Source: Mesoplasma seiffertii ATCC 49495
GTDB taxonomy: Bacteria; Bacillota_I; Bacilli_A; Mycoplasmatales; Mycoplasmataceae
Direction: 5' to 3'
Length of the DNA stretch: 64,000 nucleotides
Assembly: GCF_000518725.1 (NCBI RefSeq)
Contig: NZ_KI912485.1
Span: forward strand, 65,866-129,865
Below, piece after piece: positions 2-47,457 of this stretch. Under the pieces are notes generated by a model, which saw only the letters and a program-made list of their open reading frames with translations, was not told the origin of the DNA and ran no database searches. Numbering within the stretch: the stretch's first letter is position 1; each line of letters begins with the position of its first letter. Made by a program: the position numbers and the translations under genes.

Positions 2-1024
2 ATTTTATTTTTGGGTATTAACTCAATTCAAATTATTTTAATTGTAATTGCTGCTTCTTTATACAAAGATACACCAGATTATTTAAAATTAATTTTGCCT
101 TCATTAATCATTGCAATTGGAATGATGATTGGACCAATTATGGCACTTTTAAGAGTTGTTGTTGGGTTAATGCAAGCTGCAACTGCTGCAACTCGTATTG
201 AGGAAATTTTAGAAGAAAAAACTCGCTTCAATAATCATTTTGAAGATAAACAAGGAATTCACATTGATAAAATTAGTGGAGATATTCATTTTAAAGATAT
301 TACATTTTGTTATCCTGAAAAACCTGATAAGGTAATCTTACCTAACTTTGATTTCACTTTAAAAGAAGGGAAATCATATGCTTTTGTTGGAGAAACCGGA
401 GCAGGAAAATCAACAATTTCAAAATTACTTTTAAGATTTTATGATCCAACTAAAGGACAAGTTTTAATTAACAATAATATTGATTTAAAAGATGTTTACT
501 TATCATCATATTTAAATCATGTAGGATATGTTGAGCAAGAACCATCAATATTATTAGGTAATGTTTATGACAATGTTCGTTATTCTAGATTTGAGGCATC
601 TGATGAGGAAGTTATTAATGCATGTAAAAAAGCTGAGCTTCATGAATTAATTATGAGTTGACCAGAAGGTTACAATACAATTTTAGGTGAACGTGGATTT
701 ATGTTATCTGGAGGTCAAAAACAACGTTTGGTAATTGCCAGAATGTTTTTAAAAGACCCTAAGATTTTGATTTTGGATGAAGCAACTTCAGCCTTAGATA
801 ATATTGTTGAAAAAGAAATTCAAGGAAAATTGGATGAACTAATGAAAGGGCGCACAACAATTTCAATTGCGCACCGTTTATCAACTATTAAAAATGTTGA
901 TCAAATTATTGTATTAGGACCACAAAAAGGAATTGTTCAAATTGGAACATTTGAACAATTAAAAACAACACCAGGTCATTTTAAAAAGTTATATGATGCT
1001 GGTCAGTCTAAAAATGATTTATAG
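2..1024 (+). CDS. ABC exporter half-transporter, C-terminal part (5' end outside window)
   Basis: This is the last part of a membrane-domain plus ATPase-domain (half-size) ABC exporter, about 340 residues; the start lies upstream of the window. The first ~65 residues are hydrophobic (end of the membrane domain). The nucleotide-binding domain follows, with Walker [10 protein letters not shown] (nt ~389-415), signature LSGGQKQR (nt ~704-727), Walker B ILILDEAT with the catalytic Glu, and the H-loop IAHRLST. A TGA at 659-661 is read as Trp. All ATPase motifs are intact. The next gene is a paralogue 26 nt downstream, so the two probably form a heterodimer. The substrate cannot be told from sequence; multidrug or lipid export is typical of the family. 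Confidence 0.9.
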
Positions 1025-1050
1025 AATCGAATCTAGAAAGGGAGATTATT

Positions 1051-2889
1051 ATGACGAAACAAAAAAATAAGTTAAATTCACTTTTTAAATTCGATAGTGA
1101 TAAAAAATTCACATGAAAAAAAATGGGTAGTTTCATTAAAATTATGAATGAAGCAGCCAAAGATAATATGTTTTTATTTCTATCAATGGTATTTATTACC
1201 ATTTTTGATGCTTTATTAGCGGCTTTGTTACCAATAGCATCATCAGAAATGGTTAAAATTTTACTAAACAATGGAACTCCTGGATCTTTTTTAGGAATGA
1301 CAATGTACTGATATAGTTGAATTTATGTAGTACTAGTAATCATGTCAGTGATGTTAGTAGCAGAATATTTTACTAACGCAACAATTGGACTTTTTTCAGT
1401 AAAAATTGAGGTTATGCAACGTAATAAAATTTTGATTTCGTTAGTTAACCAAGATGTCGAATTTTTCTTTGACCATGTTTCAGGAAATATTATGACTCGT
1501 TTAGTAGCAGATACTCAAGGATTATCATTGGGAATTCAGCAATTTGTAACAAATATTATTTATTGTGTTACGGGATTAGTAGCATCACTAACAATTTTAT
1601 TCTTATATGGACAATTTTTAGTAGGTGGAATTGCACTAGGTTACATTTTTGCAGTAATTATTATTGCAACAATCATCTTTATCTTTTTTAGAAGAAAATT
1701 GATTATTGCATTTGATATAAAACGTGATGTGGATACTGACATGACAGATAGAATCGCAAATATTTCTTTAATTAAAGCTAATGGTTTAGAAGAATACGAG
1801 ATTCAGCGTTTAGAAAAAATGAATAACAGATATAACCGTTCAAGTGATGTTGTTGTAAGTTTATCAGCACTATTAAACTTATGAATTACAATAACAACTT
1901 CATTTTTATCAACTTTTATTATTATCATTGCTGCATTAAAAGCTATTAGTGGAGATCAATCAATTATGAGTGATTTAGTATTAGCGTTACCATTGCTTTC
2001 ACAAATGGTTGTAGCAATTGTAATGTTAGTTCCAACACTACGTGCAGCAGCTCGTGCTTCAAATAGTGCTGATCGAATTGGACAATTAACTGAACCAATT
2101 CCCGAAATTGACCCAAACCTTGAAAATGGTAAGCTAATTTCATCAATTGATGAAATTGAGTTTGTTAATCTTCAATTTGCTTATCCAAAGAAAAAAGAAA
2201 AAATTATTTTACCGACAATGAATTTTACTTTTAAAAAAGGTCGTTCATATGCCTTTGTTGGTGAAACTGGATCTGGGAAGTCAACAATTGCTAGATTATT
2301 ATTAAGATTTTATGATCCAATTCAAGGAGAAATTATCATCAATAAAAAAGATAAATTGACAGAGTTAAATTTACCAAATTATTTAAGTCACGTTGGTTAT
2401 GTGGAACAAGAACCTCAAATTTTCTTTGGTGACTTTTATGAAAATATTCGTTATGCAAAATTTGATGCAACTGATGAAGAAATTTATGAAGCATGTAAAA
2501 AAGCAAAGTTACATGACTTTATTTTAACTTTACCAGAAGGATATAAAACAATTTTAGGTCAAAGAGGATTCTTATTATCAGGGGGACAAAAACAACGTTT
2601 GGTTATTGCCAGAGTATTTTTAAAAAATCCTGATTTAATTATTCTTGATGAAGCAACTTCAGCGTTAGACAATATTGTTGAAAAAGAAATTCAGGCTCAA
2701 CTAAATGAGTTAGTTGTCGGGAAAACAAGCGTTACAATTGCGCACCGTTTATCAACAATTAAAAATGTCGATGAAATTATCGTCCTTGGTGCAAACGGAA
2801 CAGGAATTGTTCAGACTGGAACATTTGAGGACTTAATTAAAACTGAAGGTCATTTTAAAAAGCTATATGAAGCAGGATTAATGAAGTAG
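1051..2889 (+). CDS. ABC exporter half-transporter (membrane domain + ATPase)
   Basis: 612 aa, complete. The ATG at 1051 has an AAGGGAG ribosome site about 8 nt upstream. Residues ~25-330 form a six-helix exporter-type membrane domain. The ATPase domain follows, with Walker A GETGSGKST (~residue 404), signature LSGGQKQR (~509), Walker B LIILDEAT and H-loop IAHRLST. Several TGA codons are read as Trp. It closely resembles the preceding partial gene, including an almost identical ATPase domain, so a tandem duplication that makes a heterodimeric exporter is the likely history. No periplasmic-type binding protein is nearby, which fits export rather than import. The substrate is unknown. Confidence 0.92.
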
Positions 2890-40516: not shown

Positions 40517-41942
<1,426 letters not shown>

Positions 41943-41959
<17 letters not shown>

Positions 41960-43487
41960 TTTGTATTATCATTCCTTTTTCAATTTTATTTTGTTTTATT
42001 TCAACGACATATCCATATTCATCTGCAAGAATTTTATTTGTTCTATTTTTGAAATATGTCAGTTTGCTTAAAGACAATGTCATAATTAGACTAATTGTTA
42101 CTCCAATTAACATACTTATTGGTCCTCAAACAATTGAGCCCCCAGCTCATTGATCAATATTAATGGTGTTCGGAACATTTGAAGCAAATCCGATTAATCC
42201 TAATATTCCGAAAGGTGCGGCATTAGTTCAAACTCCAGCAGCGGTATACAATAGACATCCAAAATATGTTCCAATAGCTGATGCTATAAGAGGGAAAACA
42301 TACTTCAAAGAAATTGAATAAATAGCTGGTTCTGTTACTCCAGCTACAAATGCTGAAATACCATTAGAATATGCAGTAGTTTTAACCTCTTTACAGTTTT
42401 TGTTTATGTAACCAAATGTTAGACAGCCAACGGCTAAACAAACATTTGAAATAATCATAAGTCCCATAATGAAACTTCCGTTATATTTTAAAATATCTTG
42501 CATTAAGATCGGAGTAATTGTTCGATGCAATCCAAATACTACCATTGGTCCATAAAACATTCCGATAAGTGGTGAAAAGATATATTTGGTAATTGGATGA
42601 GTCATTAGATAATTAAAGGCAATTGACATATAGTTTGTTAATAACAAACCAGCTGGAGCAATTGTAAACATTGTTACAATAACTGTTACAGCGATAACTA
42701 CCATTGGTTGAATTAACAATCTTGCGCCACCTAGCTTAACCTTGTTCATTCCTTTTTCAATATATACTCCCAAAATTCCAACAAAAATCATAGGGATTAC
42801 TAATCCTTCAAATGATATTTTTCAAGGGAATACCAGATCACCAAAAATTTTTCAACCATGTTGATTCATCGCTTCAATTATGGTTTCACCTTCCTTGATG
42901 TTTAATGCCGAAATTGGTACTAGCATAGGGCTAATAAGAATCGCACCTATTGCCAATCCTAAAATGGGGGTTCCACCCATAACTTTGAATGTACTTCAAC
43001 AAACAGCCATTACAATGAATCAACTTAAACCTTTTGATATCAATTCCATCATACTGTTTATTTCAATCAAAGCTCCAATTTCACTAGAATTAGATGACAA
43101 GAAAAACGGGGTTCTAACCATTTCTCACATTCCATAAACAACTAGTAAAATCATTAAGGGGCTAAAGATTGATGAGACAAACATAATAAATGATGTTTTC
43201 TGTTTTGATACGGTTAGTTCATCATCTGTTGCTTCTTTTACCTCAGTTGTTTTGGTAAAAAGTTTATAAAAGCTTTCAACTTCTGTACCAATAACTACTT
43301 GGTATTCTCCTCCAACAACTAATACGCCTTTACATCAAGTTTGTTTTTTAATTTCTTCAGTATTAGCTTTTGAGATATCTTTTAATCGAAATCTCATTCT
43401 CGATATGCAATGACTAGTTGAGTCAATGTTATCAATTCCGCCAATATTTTCTAAAAGAAATATTACGTGTTCTTTTTTAAATTTCAT
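41943..43487 (-). CDS. PTS beta-glucoside transporter, EIIBC
   Basis: 514 aa, minus strand. EIIB is at the N-terminus with the phosphorylation Cys27 in SHCISRMRF; EIIC follows with about 8-10 membrane helices and the HRTITPIL and GVTEPAIY motifs of the glucose/beta-glucoside superfamily. There is no EIIA domain at the end (family members with EIIA are ~620 aa), so phosphate must come from an EIIA encoded elsewhere. A perfect AGGAGG ribosome site precedes the ATG. It imports and phosphorylates a beta-glucoside for the overlapping GH1 enzyme. Confidence 0.93.
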
Positions 43488-43543
43488 AAGTCCTCCTACC
43501 TACATTTAAACTTAATTAAAATAAAAAAAGAGCAAATAAAAAG

Positions 43544-43584
43544 AAAACTAAACTAGTTTATTTTTCCGAAACTAGTTTAGTTTT
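43544..43584. repeat. 16-bp inverted repeat built of two AAACTAGTTT palindromes
   Basis: AAAACTAAACTAGTTT (43544-43559) and its exact complement AAACTAGTTTAGTTTT (43569-43584) flank a 9-nt loop. Each arm contains the self-complementary decamer AAACTAGTTT, with centres 19 bp apart. It lies between the end of the regulator gene (its stop codon is inside) and the PTS start, 57 nt away. It can act as a terminator for the regulator (T-rich on minus strand) and also looks like a double operator. Confidence 0.8.
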
Positions 43585-44333
43585 TCTTGGGCAAAAAGTA
43601 GTTCTTCTAAAAACTTGAACAAATTTATTAGTCAAAAATTTCGATCAACATAATTTCTTTGACTTAAATTGTTGTCGATATACATAGCTTTAGTATTTTT
43701 ATCTTTTGCAAAATTTCAATTGTTAGAACAAATTACATAAACAGTCAAATCAATGCTAACTAGGTAATCATAAATTATTTTTAAACTTGCATTATCTCGA
43801 CCAGTAAAAATAATTAAAATAAGTTTATTTTCTCAATTAATCTTTTTCAATTTGTTGAAGTCCTTTTCAAGATTGAAAATATTAGCAACTAAGTTATGCT
43901 TTTCTAAGACATCAACAAAAAATTTTCCTGCGTATTGAGTTTGAAAACTTGGAAACAAAAAAACTTCCTCTTTGCTTTTAATACCTTTTAGCAAATCAGT
44001 TAAGAAAACATAATTTTCCGATATTCACTTTTCAAAAGAAAGATAGTAATCTTTAACAGTTAGATGACTAGAATAGTTACTGTCTTGCTCAACAAAGTTG
44101 TTCTCATAGTCAACTTTTAATCTTGTTTGCAATTCTCGAAAACCAGTACAGCCAAGATTTTTTGCAAATTGGGTGATTGTTGATTTTGAAACGTAGCATT
44201 CGCTAGCCAATTGTTCTTGGGTTTTAAATAACCCTTTAGAAAAATCTTTGACAATTTGTTCAGCTACCAATTTAAATGCTGTTTTACGATTATCTCGACT
44301 CAAATTTTCAACTTTTTTGTACATTGAACTCAT
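43572..44333 (-). CDS. Transcriptional regulator, MurR/RpiR family
   Basis: 253 aa, minus strand. An N-terminal HTH_6 domain (~1-80) has FKTQEQLASECYVSKSTITQFAKNLG, the helix-turn-helix of RpiR regulators. The C-terminal part should be a sugar-phosphate-binding SIS domain; here it keeps KLILIIFTGRDN but is poorly conserved. It probably senses the phosphorylated sugar and controls the PTS/GH1 genes directly downstream on the same strand. TGA-coded Trp occurs several times. The stop at 43572 lies inside the double palindrome. Confidence 0.85.
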
Positions 44334-44481: not shown

Positions 44482-45036
44482 ATGATGATGAATTCTAAAG
44501 TCGCAATTTTTATGCATACAGGATTTGAAGAAATTGAAGCAATTTCAATAATTGATATTTTACGCCGAGCTGAAATTGAAGTTGAATTGATATCATTGAA
44601 TGATAGTTTATCAGTAGTTGGATCACATCAAATTGAAGTTATGGCTAATGATAATTACCACAATTTTAAAAGTGACAACTATCAAGGTATCATTATTCCT
44701 GGTGGTCCAGGGGTTAATGATTTATTTGAAAATGTTTTTTTATTATCAACAATCAAAGAATTTAATAATGCTAAAAAAATGGTTGCAGCAATATGTGCAG
44801 CGCCTCAATTATTAGGAAAAGCAGGAATTGCTGCCAATAAAGAAATTTCCGGATATCCAGGGTGTACTGCTTTTTTAGATAAAGCAAGATTAAGTAATAC
44901 TGCTTATTCAGTTGCTGATAATATTTTAACTGGGCAGTCAGCTGGAACAGCTATTAAATTTGCCCTAACAATAGTTCAATATTTAAAAGATGAACAAACA
45001 AGCAAAAAAGTTGCCGATGCTCTAGTCATTAATTAA
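44482..45036 (+). CDS. DJ-1/ThiJ/PfpI-family protein
   Basis: 184 aa. Class I glutamine-amidotransferase-like fold. The reactive Cys sits in AAICAAPQLLG (~residue 106) and the partner Glu in FEEIEA (~17), the typical DJ-1 pair; GGPGVNDL is also conserved. Members act as protein/DNA deglycases, glyoxalases or redox chaperones, and the exact activity cannot be told. AGAGGA lies 8 nt before the ATG at 44482 (two further ATGs follow in frame). No TGA codon. It starts the plus-strand unit after the regulator. Confidence 0.9.
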   Translation: MMMNSKVAIFMHTGFEEIEAISIIDILRRAEIEVELISLNDSLSVVGSHQIEVMANDNYHNFKSDNYQGIIIPGGPGVNDLFENVFLLSTIKEFNNAKKMVAAICAAPQLLGKAGIAANKEISGYPGCTAFLDKARLSNTAYSVADNILTGQSAGTAIKFALTIVQYLKDEQTSKKVADALVIN

Positions 45037-45071
45037 CTATTTTCTCTAATTCTTTAGGGTGAGAAAATTAG
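45037..45071 (+). repeat. Hairpin around the start of the C39/ABC gene
   Basis: CTATTTTCTC (45037-45046) pairs with GAGAAAATTAG (45061-45071) with one bulged A. The loop holds the ribosome-site-like AGGGT; the 3' arm holds the presumed ATT start. There is no T-run, so it is not an ordinary terminator. Confidence 0.55.
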
Positions 45072-46920
45072 ACACATCAAGCAAACAAGATATCAGGATT
45101 GTGGTGTTGCTTGTTTAGCAATGCTGATTGAATATTTTCACAAGACTTCTATTGATATCGATCAAATTAAGTATGAACAAAATTTAGGTTTAAATAACTT
45201 AAATTTTTTTGATTTAATAATGATTGGTAAAAGTTATTATTTAAATGGTGAAGCTTTTCAGGAGGTATCCAGTTTAGAAGAACTTAAGCATCAAAAACCA
45301 TTTTTGGCTCAAATTACTGATTCTCAAGGAATTTTACATTTTGTTGTTGTCAGCCAAATAACAAATACTAAGGTTATTATTAATGATCCTAGTCAAAATA
45401 AAGCATCATCGCTATTTTGAAACGAGTTCAAAAAGATTTTTACTGGCAATATTATTATTTTTACAGCCAATTCTAAACTTTATAAAACTAGTCGAAGTTT
45501 TTGAAAAACGCTTAATTTTAAAAACTACGCTTTGTTTATTTTGACTTATTCAATAATTACTTTTGTAACTACAATAGTTTTTATTGCTGAAAGCCAGTTT
45601 ATTAAAAAGTACGGACAAGACATTAGTAATGATTATCCGAATCTATATTTGTACGGATATTTTTTGGGTCTTTTTCTTCTAAACTTAGGTTTTAGAGAAC
45701 TAAATAATTTTGTTTTAGAAAAATTGAAAAGTAAGCAACAATTAATTATGCTTAAAAAGTTTTTGCATTTTTGCATTGATTATAATAATCAAATTGATTA
45801 TTACAAGATTTTTGAAGAAAGCAAATTTATAATTGAGTTTCTTACCAACGTAGTAATTCCAATGATACCAACAACAATTGCTAATATTCTTTGCTTAGTA
45901 ATTATTGCACGAATTAATTTTGGCGTTGCTAGTTTAATTTTTATTCATAATCTCATAGTAATAGGAATTACAATTGTAGTTAAAACGCCGTTACAAATGC
46001 CAGTAACCAATCTTGAAGTCATAAAGTATCTTACCAACAAAGAAATCTATCAAAATTCTGGCAAGGAAACACAAGTTATTGAAAAGATTTTAGAGCAACA
46101 GCAAACTAACACTCAATCATTTTCAAATAGTCAATTGTTAAAAACTCTAGAACTAATTTTGGACAAAGTCTTAATCTTTTTAATTTATTGATTTTTGTGG
46201 TTTGATTTAAAAAATCAAGTAGCGAGTTTTGAAAGTCTAATTATGATCTTAATTTTAAATAACTTAAATCAAGGAAACTTAAAAATTATTTTAGCATTTG
46301 TTAGACAGCGTAAAAAATATTTAAGCTATACAATTAAAATTAATAAACTCTTCAATAAACCAAAACCCACCGGCGATTGTGCGACGATTAAAAATATTAA
46401 AATTGTTGAGTTTGAAAAACAGCCGCTAATTTTTAAACCTGGAGTCAATGTTGTTAAAAAAGAACTCGGATTTCTAAAGGTTATTAACAAAGCTTCCAAA
46501 AATAGTTTTCTTGAAGTTTTCATTAATGATGAAAGACATTTAAATTTAAATTCTTTAGCTATAAGGCAACAAGTATATTATGCCAATAGTCAACATTTAG
46601 ATATTTGATACGGCACCTTATTAAGCAACTTAGTAGATAATAATTTAAAAAACAATACTGCAGCTATATTAAAGGAAAGTTGCTTTTTAGATTTTCTTGA
46701 TAATTATAATCTTAAGCTCCAAAGTTTAATTAACCCGGAAATTATAACTGAATTTCAAAAGGAAGTTATTATTTTACTTAGATGTTTGTTTACTTCAAAG
46801 GCAGTTTACATTATTGATCAGAATTTTCAGTTGATAAAGCAACAAGATTGTTTAAAACTTCTTCAGTTAGCTACAAAATTTAGTCCTAATTTGCTAATTG
46901 TTTTTAACGACTTATACTAA
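45067..46920 (+). CDS. C39-peptidase/ABC protein with degenerate ATPase domain
   Basis: 617 aa if started at ATT 45067. The peptidase domain is intact: Gln6 and Cys12 in IKQTRYQDCGVACLAM, His91 in ILHFVVV and Asp107 in INDP. About five to six membrane helices follow (~155-390). The C-terminal ATPase-like domain (~420-617) has no Walker A (GVNVVKKELGFLKV in its place), no LSGGQ and only a weak Walker B (AVYIIDQNF). No ATG/GTG/TTG precedes the catalytic Cys in frame (TAG at 45055); ATT has AGGGTGAG 5 nt upstream. Mollicute family Mbov_0121 (from memory) is the likely parent. It may be a decaying gene or one that works through a partner ATPase. Confidence 0.75.
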
Positions 46921-46962: not shown

Positions 46963-47457
46963 ATGATCGAAATAAATTTTATTAATGAAACACCAATAAA
47001 TATGGAAAAATGAGAAAAGTTTGGGAAAACTATTTTTAATAATGCTTATAAGGTTTTAAATATAAAAGATAAAATTGAGCTATCAGTTACATTTGTTGAT
47101 TCTCAAAAAGCACAAGAAATCAATCAACAATATCGCGACAAATCTTACATTGCTGATGTAACATCTTTTCCTGTCGAAATGTCAGCTCAAGAAATTGCTG
47201 CATTAGGGGTAAGAGAAATTGGAGATATGTTTTTATGTTTGGAAGAAGCTCATCGTAAAACCATCAAATATGACCATACAATTGAACAAGAGATGGGGTT
47301 CTTATTTGTTCATGGGTTCTTGCATTTACTAGGTTATGATCATGAAACGAGTTTAGAAGATGAAGCAGAAATGTTTAAATATCAAGAAGAAATTTTGAAG
47401 ATGAGCCAAATAGAGTATGAAATAAAGTTTGTTGAAGAAGATTACATAGGAGAATAG
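46963..47457 (+). CDS. ybeY: Endoribonuclease YbeY (rRNA maturation)
   Basis: 164 aa. Zinc-dependent RNase acting in 16S rRNA 3'-end maturation and ribosome quality control. The zinc site HGFLHLLGYDH (~residues 116-126) is perfect. GAGGG precedes the ATG. TGA at 47011 is Trp. The stop is 4 nt before era, the usual mollicute and Firmicute neighbour. Confidence 0.95.

What the first reader, a model, noticed from the sequence alone, without database searches (positions are those of the whole stretch)
45037..46920. C39-peptidase transporter that kept its protease but lost its ATPase motifs and its ATG
Seen: the peptidase tetrad (Gln6, Cys12, His91, Asp107) is intact, while the C-terminal ATPase-like domain lacks Walker A and LSGGQ and has only a weak Walker B remnant. 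No ATG/GTG/TTG lies before Cys12 in frame; the only candidate is ATT at 45067, with an AGGGTGAG ribosome site and a hairpin over the start. Known: C39 ABC transporters cleave double-glycine leaders and export peptides with ATP. Inference: either a membrane protease no longer driven by its own ATPase (perhaps working with a partner ABC protein), or an early pseudogene. An extra A in the A-run at 45064-45067 would instead allow a GTG start at 45059, so a sequencing or strain indel is possible.
Basis: partly seen in the sequence, partly recalled or inferred. Interest (0 to 1): 0.75.

Follow-up and report, generated by a model that had tools for sequence, protein, structure and literature searches.

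The report
Peptide exporter reduced to a protease
In a whole group of small wall-less bacteria, a pump that normally trims and exports peptides has kept its cutting part but lost its ATP-burning motor, and in this genome the gene appears to start at a rare ATT codon that a sister species shares, so it looks like a living, repurposed protein and not a broken gene or a sequencing error.

Summary
Confirmed and extended. The ORF at 45067-46917 (code 4, 617 aa) is a PCAT-type protein: C39 peptidase, membrane domain, and an ABC-NBD-like domain without working motifs. It is not a local pseudogene. Among 46 aligned relatives (45 from its family) the peptidase residues Gln/Cys/His/Asp persist in all but one. 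Walker A, LSxGQ, Walker B and H-loop are intact in 28 and lost together in 18: five genera including this one and the Mesoplasma genus, plus one species of a sixth. The loss needs at least two changes on the tree, though a single origin is only marginally rejected (p-AU 0.0515). A sister species has deleted the NBD entirely at the same locus, keeping peptidase and membrane domain. dN/dS is about 0.15. In 15 of the 18 a small single-pass membrane protein, otherwise encoded directly downstream, is also gone.

The ATT start is probably real: a sister species (61% identity) has the same A-run, ATT and ribosome site, and relatives have TTG at that codon. Two Spiroplasma-like genomes reached ATT independently.

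Best reading: an ATP-independent, membrane-anchored C39 protease derived from an exporter. Substrate unknown; no activity shown.

The parts
45067..46920 (+). C39 peptidase / membrane domain / ATPase-dead NBD-like protein, 617 aa, code 4, ATT start
45067..45456 (+). C39 peptidase domain, residues about 1-130; catalytic Gln6, Cys12, His91, Asp107
45457..46341 (+). Membrane domain, residues about 131-425; the model shows long helices as in ABC exporters, with poorly predicted stretches at residues 308-312 and 349-356
46342..46917 (+). NBD-like domain, residues about 426-617, no Walker A, LSxGQ, catalytic Glu or H-loop His
45055..45063 (+). Ribosome-binding region (TTAGGGTGAG) ahead of the ATT; the leader is nearly identical in the sister species
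45067..45069 (+). ATT start codon, shared with G003; aligned with TTG in G004 and Mesoplasma-type relatives
44482..45036 (+). PfpI/DJ-1-like gene directly upstream, conserved neighbour (30 bases between stop and ATT)
46963..47457 (+). ybeY directly downstream; in ATPase-intact relatives a single-pass membrane protein gene lies between

Best explanation
The gene encodes a membrane-anchored C39 cysteine protease that descends from a peptidase-containing ABC exporter (PCAT, Mbov_0121 type) and works without ATP hydrolysis of its own. Shown here: the peptidase residues, the membrane domain and a reduced NBD-like domain; joint loss of all ATPase motifs over several genera with purifying selection on the ORF; complete absence of the NBD in one sister species; absence of the small downstream membrane protein in most of the ATPase-less set; an ATT at the start position, conserved in two species. 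Inferred: unable to bind ATP, the protein stays in the inward-facing state in which PCATs cleave, so it trims the leader of one or more substrates at the inner membrane face without pumping them; the membrane domain serves as anchor and docking site; ATT initiation keeps expression low, possibly coupled to translation of pfpI just upstream.
For: Peptidase tetrad kept in 45 of 46 aligned proteins while all ATPase motifs are lost in 18 and kept in 28. G001 has C39 plus membrane domain only, in the same gene order; its C39 domain is modelled confidently and matches ComA and PCAT1 peptidases. dN/dS 0.15 between G000 and G003, 0.08-0.20 in Mesoplasma-type pairs, with C39 the tightest domain in most of these pairs. 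Same ATT and leader in G003; TTG at the aligned codon elsewhere. The downstream membrane protein is absent in 15 of 18 ATPase-less and present in 28 of 28 intact members. The full-length model is closest to PCAT1. PCAT1 protease activity is inhibited by ATP binding, and the ATP-free state is inward-facing with peptidase domains docked (PMC6959990).
Against: No protease activity, expression or start site has been measured. No substrate is known and no double-glycine peptide gene was identified. The gene is broken or absent in several relatives, so it is dispensable there. dS between G000 and G003 is near saturation. The NBD-like domain is still conserved in most members, so it may do something that this reading leaves open.
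Confidence: 0.62

Rival explanations
1. The protein still takes part in ATP-driven export by pairing with a separate ABC protein that supplies the ATP sites (degenerate half of a heterodimer).
For: Degenerate NBDs do occur in heterodimeric ABC exporters (general knowledge). The NBD-like domain is still under selection, and two adjacent ABC half-transporters with intact motifs lie at window 11-2889.
Against: All ATP-site motifs are gone, including the ones a degenerate half normally lends to its partner. G001 has no NBD at all. No second C39 protein exists in the genome, and no ABC ATPase gene is next to this one.
Confidence: 0.2
2. The gene is decaying: an exporter on its way to loss, with no present function.
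For: Broken copies exist in relatives (G031, G018, G064; frames interrupted in G036 and G080). The NBD-like part evolves faster than the C39 domain in the ATPase-less set.
Against: Open frame of equal length and dN/dS 0.15 in the sister species; tetrad intact across 18 ATPase-less proteins; conserved gene order and leader. ATPase loss predates the split of several genera.
Confidence: 0.12
3. The missing start codon is a sequencing or strain indel in the A-run at 45064-45067.
For: A homopolymer lies next to a GTG in another frame.
Against: A different species at 61% protein identity has the same A-run and the same ATT, and its GTG frame stops after six codons. Relatives place TTG at exactly the ATT codon.
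Confidence: 0.03
4. It imports lipoyl-peptides and transfers the lipoyl group to pyruvate dehydrogenase, as proposed for the C39 protein 0401 of JCVI-syn3A.
For: Published proposal, made because no double-glycine peptide was found in mycoplasmas (PMC6609329).
Against: 54 of 60 genomes of the family encode a lipoate-protein ligase (LplA), including all four of this genus, so the role is not needed. Import without an ATPase is hard to see. The two g4 genomes without LplA do carry the ATPase-less gene, so the idea is not excluded.
Confidence: 0.03

Closest known systems
NCBIfam NF045998, Mbov_0121 family peptidase domain-containing ABC transporter
   Same: Best NCBIfam match; same domain order; 27 ATPase-intact relatives in the same family of genomes
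   Different: Scores 113.5 bits against a cut-off of 500, and the match ends at residue 450; the ATPase motifs are gone
PCAT1 of Clostridium thermocellum and ComA (peptidase-containing ABC exporters)
   Same: Same fold over the full length (Foldseek E 3e-22); same catalytic residues
   Different: Those bind and hydrolyse ATP and export the cleaved cargo; this one has no ATP-site motifs
C39 protein 0401 of JCVI-syn3A
   Same: Mycoplasma C39 protein without a known double-glycine substrate (PMC6609329)
   Different: Its ATPase motifs and gene neighbourhood were not examined here; orthology is likely from memory of the gene order, not tested
infC (ATT in E. coli) and sigR (GTC in Streptomyces), genes with IF3-repressed starts
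   Same: Conserved non-NTG start codon
   Different: No experimental proof here; infC of this genome itself has an ATG in the usual place
HlyB-type exporters with a C39-like domain
   Same: C39-like domain fused to an ABC exporter
   Different: Opposite case: HlyB keeps the ATPase and has lost the protease, here the protease is kept (general knowledge; structural match)

Membership tests
Peptidase family C39 | Domain match and catalytic Gln, Cys, His, Asp | tested here: met
   Pfam E 5e-24; tetrad invariant in 21 sequences and kept in 45 of 46
Peptidase family C39 | Cleavage after a double-glycine leader | not testable with these tools
   No substrate known; no assay
Peptidase-containing ABC exporter (PCAT) / NF045998 | C39 plus exporter membrane domain | tested here: met
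   Full-length fold match to PCAT1; profile match to PCAT1 and ComA for the family alignment
Peptidase-containing ABC exporter (PCAT) / NF045998 | Functional NBD: Walker A, LSxGQ, Walker B Glu, H-loop | tested here: not met
   All absent
Peptidase-containing ABC exporter (PCAT) / NF045998 | Score above the curated cut-off of NF045998 | tested here: not met
   113.5 bits against 500
Peptidase-containing ABC exporter, mollicute arrangement | Small single-pass membrane protein encoded between the C39 gene and ybeY | tested here: not met
   ybeY follows directly
Pseudogene | Relaxed selection or broken frame | tested here: not met
   Open frame, dN/dS 0.15
Gene with a non-canonical (ATT) start | No NTG before the first essential residue, ATT conserved with ribosome site | tested here: met
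Gene with a non-canonical (ATT) start | Initiation at ATT shown by N-terminal peptide or ribosome profiling | not testable with these tools
   No proteomics or profiling data available

The most novel reading that the evidence does not exclude
A clade of mollicutes has turned a peptide exporter into an ATP-independent, always-on membrane protease with a substrate other than an exported double-glycine peptide, and sets its level by AUU or otherwise weakened initiation; that substrate would also explain why C39 proteins are kept throughout mycoplasmas without known export cargo.
Probability: 0.25. Interest if true: 0.8.

Novelty: new variant of a known kind. Interest (0 to 1): 0.58.

Why it matters
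C39 proteins were found in 262 of 298 genomes sampled from the order, yet no double-glycine substrate is known in mycoplasmas (PMC6609329). A clade that dropped the ATPase, and mostly the small downstream protein, while keeping the protease indicates that cutting and not pumping is the function worth keeping there. This narrows the search for substrate and role, and Mesoplasma florum, one of the likely carriers, is a laboratory organism in which it can be tested. It also shows stages of an ABC exporter losing its motor, up to complete loss of the NBD, and offers a candidate for AUU-controlled translation in mollicutes.

Tried and rejected
Sequencing indel: rejected by the sister species. Early pseudogene: rejected by selection and synteny. 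Strong start hairpin in this genome: not significant, though strong hairpins burying the ribosome site exist in Mesoplasma-type relatives and G004 (z -4.3 to -6.0). Lipoyl role: the LplA survey gives no need for it. ATT as a genome-wide habit: the other 35 genes checked in the window start with ATG, and infC has ATG. Double-glycine peptide gene next door: none stood out by eye among flanking ORFs; there was no systematic or genome-wide peptide search. Paper searches on Spiroplasma C39 proteins, Mbov_0121, MMSYN1_0401 and ATPase-less C39 proteins gave nothing on the question. Second C39 protein in the genome: none. Link between ATPase loss and loss of the downstream protein: Fisher p 1.6e-9 counts sequences, but the absence is one change on the tree, so there is no independent replication.

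Full report
What is there. The frame at 45067-46917 (TGA = Trp) codes for 617 aa with a C39 peptidase domain (Pfam E 5e-24), a membrane domain, and a C-terminal domain in the place of the ABC ATPase. No ATG, GTG or TTG precedes the catalytic Cys12. It is the only C39 protein in the genome. The genome belongs to genus g1. Another g1 genome, G002, has a contig of the same length, with the match at the same place, as the record titled Acholeplasma multilocale, so the window is probably from Williamsoniiplasma (inference; genus listing). In the same way G034 corresponds to Mesoplasma grammopterae, so g5 is Mesoplasma; that G023 is M. florum rests on genome length from memory.

The ATPase. Relatives with an intact ATPase have GKSGSGKT, NLSKGQ, YLIDEP and DHD; this protein has none of them. 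The loss is not local: 18 of 46 aligned proteins lack all motifs (genera g1-g5, and G012 in g10), whereas 28 (g8, g11, g12, G019, and one protein from another family) have them. Outside the family, 32 of 34 full-length relatives have Walker A and Walker B motifs, all but one of them also LSxGQ or a close variant by pattern search. The peptidase tetrad is kept in 45 of 46; the remaining one has Asn for Asp. On a tree built from the C39 and membrane domains only, ATPase loss needs two changes. A single clade of ATPase-less proteins is just short of rejection (p-AU 0.0515), and long branches make deep placements unsure.

The end state. G001, another species of the genus, has at the same place (FtsX-like, pfpI, gene, ybeY, era, recO, glyS) a gene of 381 codons with C39 and membrane helices, no NBD, and the tetrad intact. 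Its peptidase domain is modelled with high confidence and matches the ComA and PCAT1 peptidases; the membrane part is modelled poorly. G002 has a shortened, further diverged C-terminus.

Selection. For G000 x G003 (61% amino-acid identity) dN/dS is 0.15 by NG86, with dS 1.8 near saturation. Closer Mesoplasma-type pairs give 0.08-0.20; the C39 domain 0.06-0.11 and the NBD-like domain 0.15-0.31. ATPase-intact controls give 0.10-0.11. The ORF is maintained; the NBD-like part is looser than the peptidase but far from neutral.

The neighbour that went missing. In 28 of 28 intact members a protein of about 115-140 aa with one N-terminal membrane helix starts close to the C39 stop, before ybeY. In 15 of 18 ATPase-less members it is absent and ybeY follows directly. 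The same arrangement holds in most relatives of other families; four of six tested there exceed the cut-off of NCBIfam MAG1140 (NF045999). The Spiroplasma-like ones match that model weakly or not at all. Three intact members of one other genus lack it too, so it is not strictly required. The two g4 genomes and G012 keep it without an ATPase, so where both are lost the ATPase probably went first. The absence is one change on the tree and so has no independent replication.

The start. G003 has nearly the same leader and the same ATT. In G004 and the Mesoplasma-type genomes the aligned codon is TTG behind GAGGTGA. Two of three g12 genomes also have no NTG before Cys but have an ATT where the third has TTG. 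ATT thus arose at least twice. All other 35 window genes checked start with ATG. Non-canonical starts are known to be repressed by IF3 (PMC5472188), so low or regulated expression is a reasonable inference. In G004 and the Mesoplasma-type genomes the ribosome site lies in a strong hairpin that could also be the pfpI terminator; here the hairpin is weak.

Mechanism. In PCAT1 the ATP-free state is inward-facing with the peptidase domains docked, and protease activity is inhibited by ATP binding (PMC6959990). A relative that cannot bind ATP is expected to sit in the cleaving state. Leader trimming without pumping is therefore the most likely activity; the substrate is unknown. A partner ATPase in trans is possible but made less likely by G001. 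The lipoyl-peptide role suggested for syn3A 0401 (PMC6609329) is not needed where LplA exists, which is in 54 of 60 genomes.

Limits. There are no expression or activity data. The AlphaFold model of the NBD-like part was made with intact relatives in the alignment, which may pull it towards the ABC fold. Genomes of the order were sampled, not exhausted. The literature search covered an open-access library only.

Noticed in passing
window 40517-44333 (-): A glycosyl-hydrolase, PTS and RpiR-type regulator block lies between the FtsX-like gene and pfpI; in the sister species G003 (L032) these two genes are adjacent, so the block was inserted here or lost there.
   Followed up: partly
L148 (G031), L141 (G018), L143 (G064), L130 (G036), L132 (G080): Broken or fragmentary copies of the C39 gene, in a Mesoplasma-type genome and several Spiroplasma-like ones; the gene is dispensable in some lineages.
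   Followed up: no
L020 1489-3501, L023 1489-3501: ATPase-intact C39 genes of genus g12 that also have no NTG start before Cys, with ATT at the aligned start.
   Followed up: partly
L005-L009 and L004, start region: Strong hairpin burying the ribosome site ahead of a TTG start, z -4.3 to -6.0; possibly also the terminator of pfpI.
   Followed up: partly
L020 3504-3860, L017 1074-1451 (-), L016 1044-1418 (-) and others: A small single-pass membrane protein encoded between the C39 gene and ybeY in most mollicutes; MAG1140 family in other families, no confident family match in the Spiroplasma-like genomes. Probably the partner of the ATPase-intact exporter.
   Followed up: partly
L166 (G059), L173 (G226): Two C39 proteins outside the family without a recognisable Walker A; possible further independent ATPase losses.
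   Followed up: no
window 11-2889 (+): Two adjacent ABC half-transporters with intact Walker A and LSGGQ motifs; possible but untested partners.
   Followed up: no
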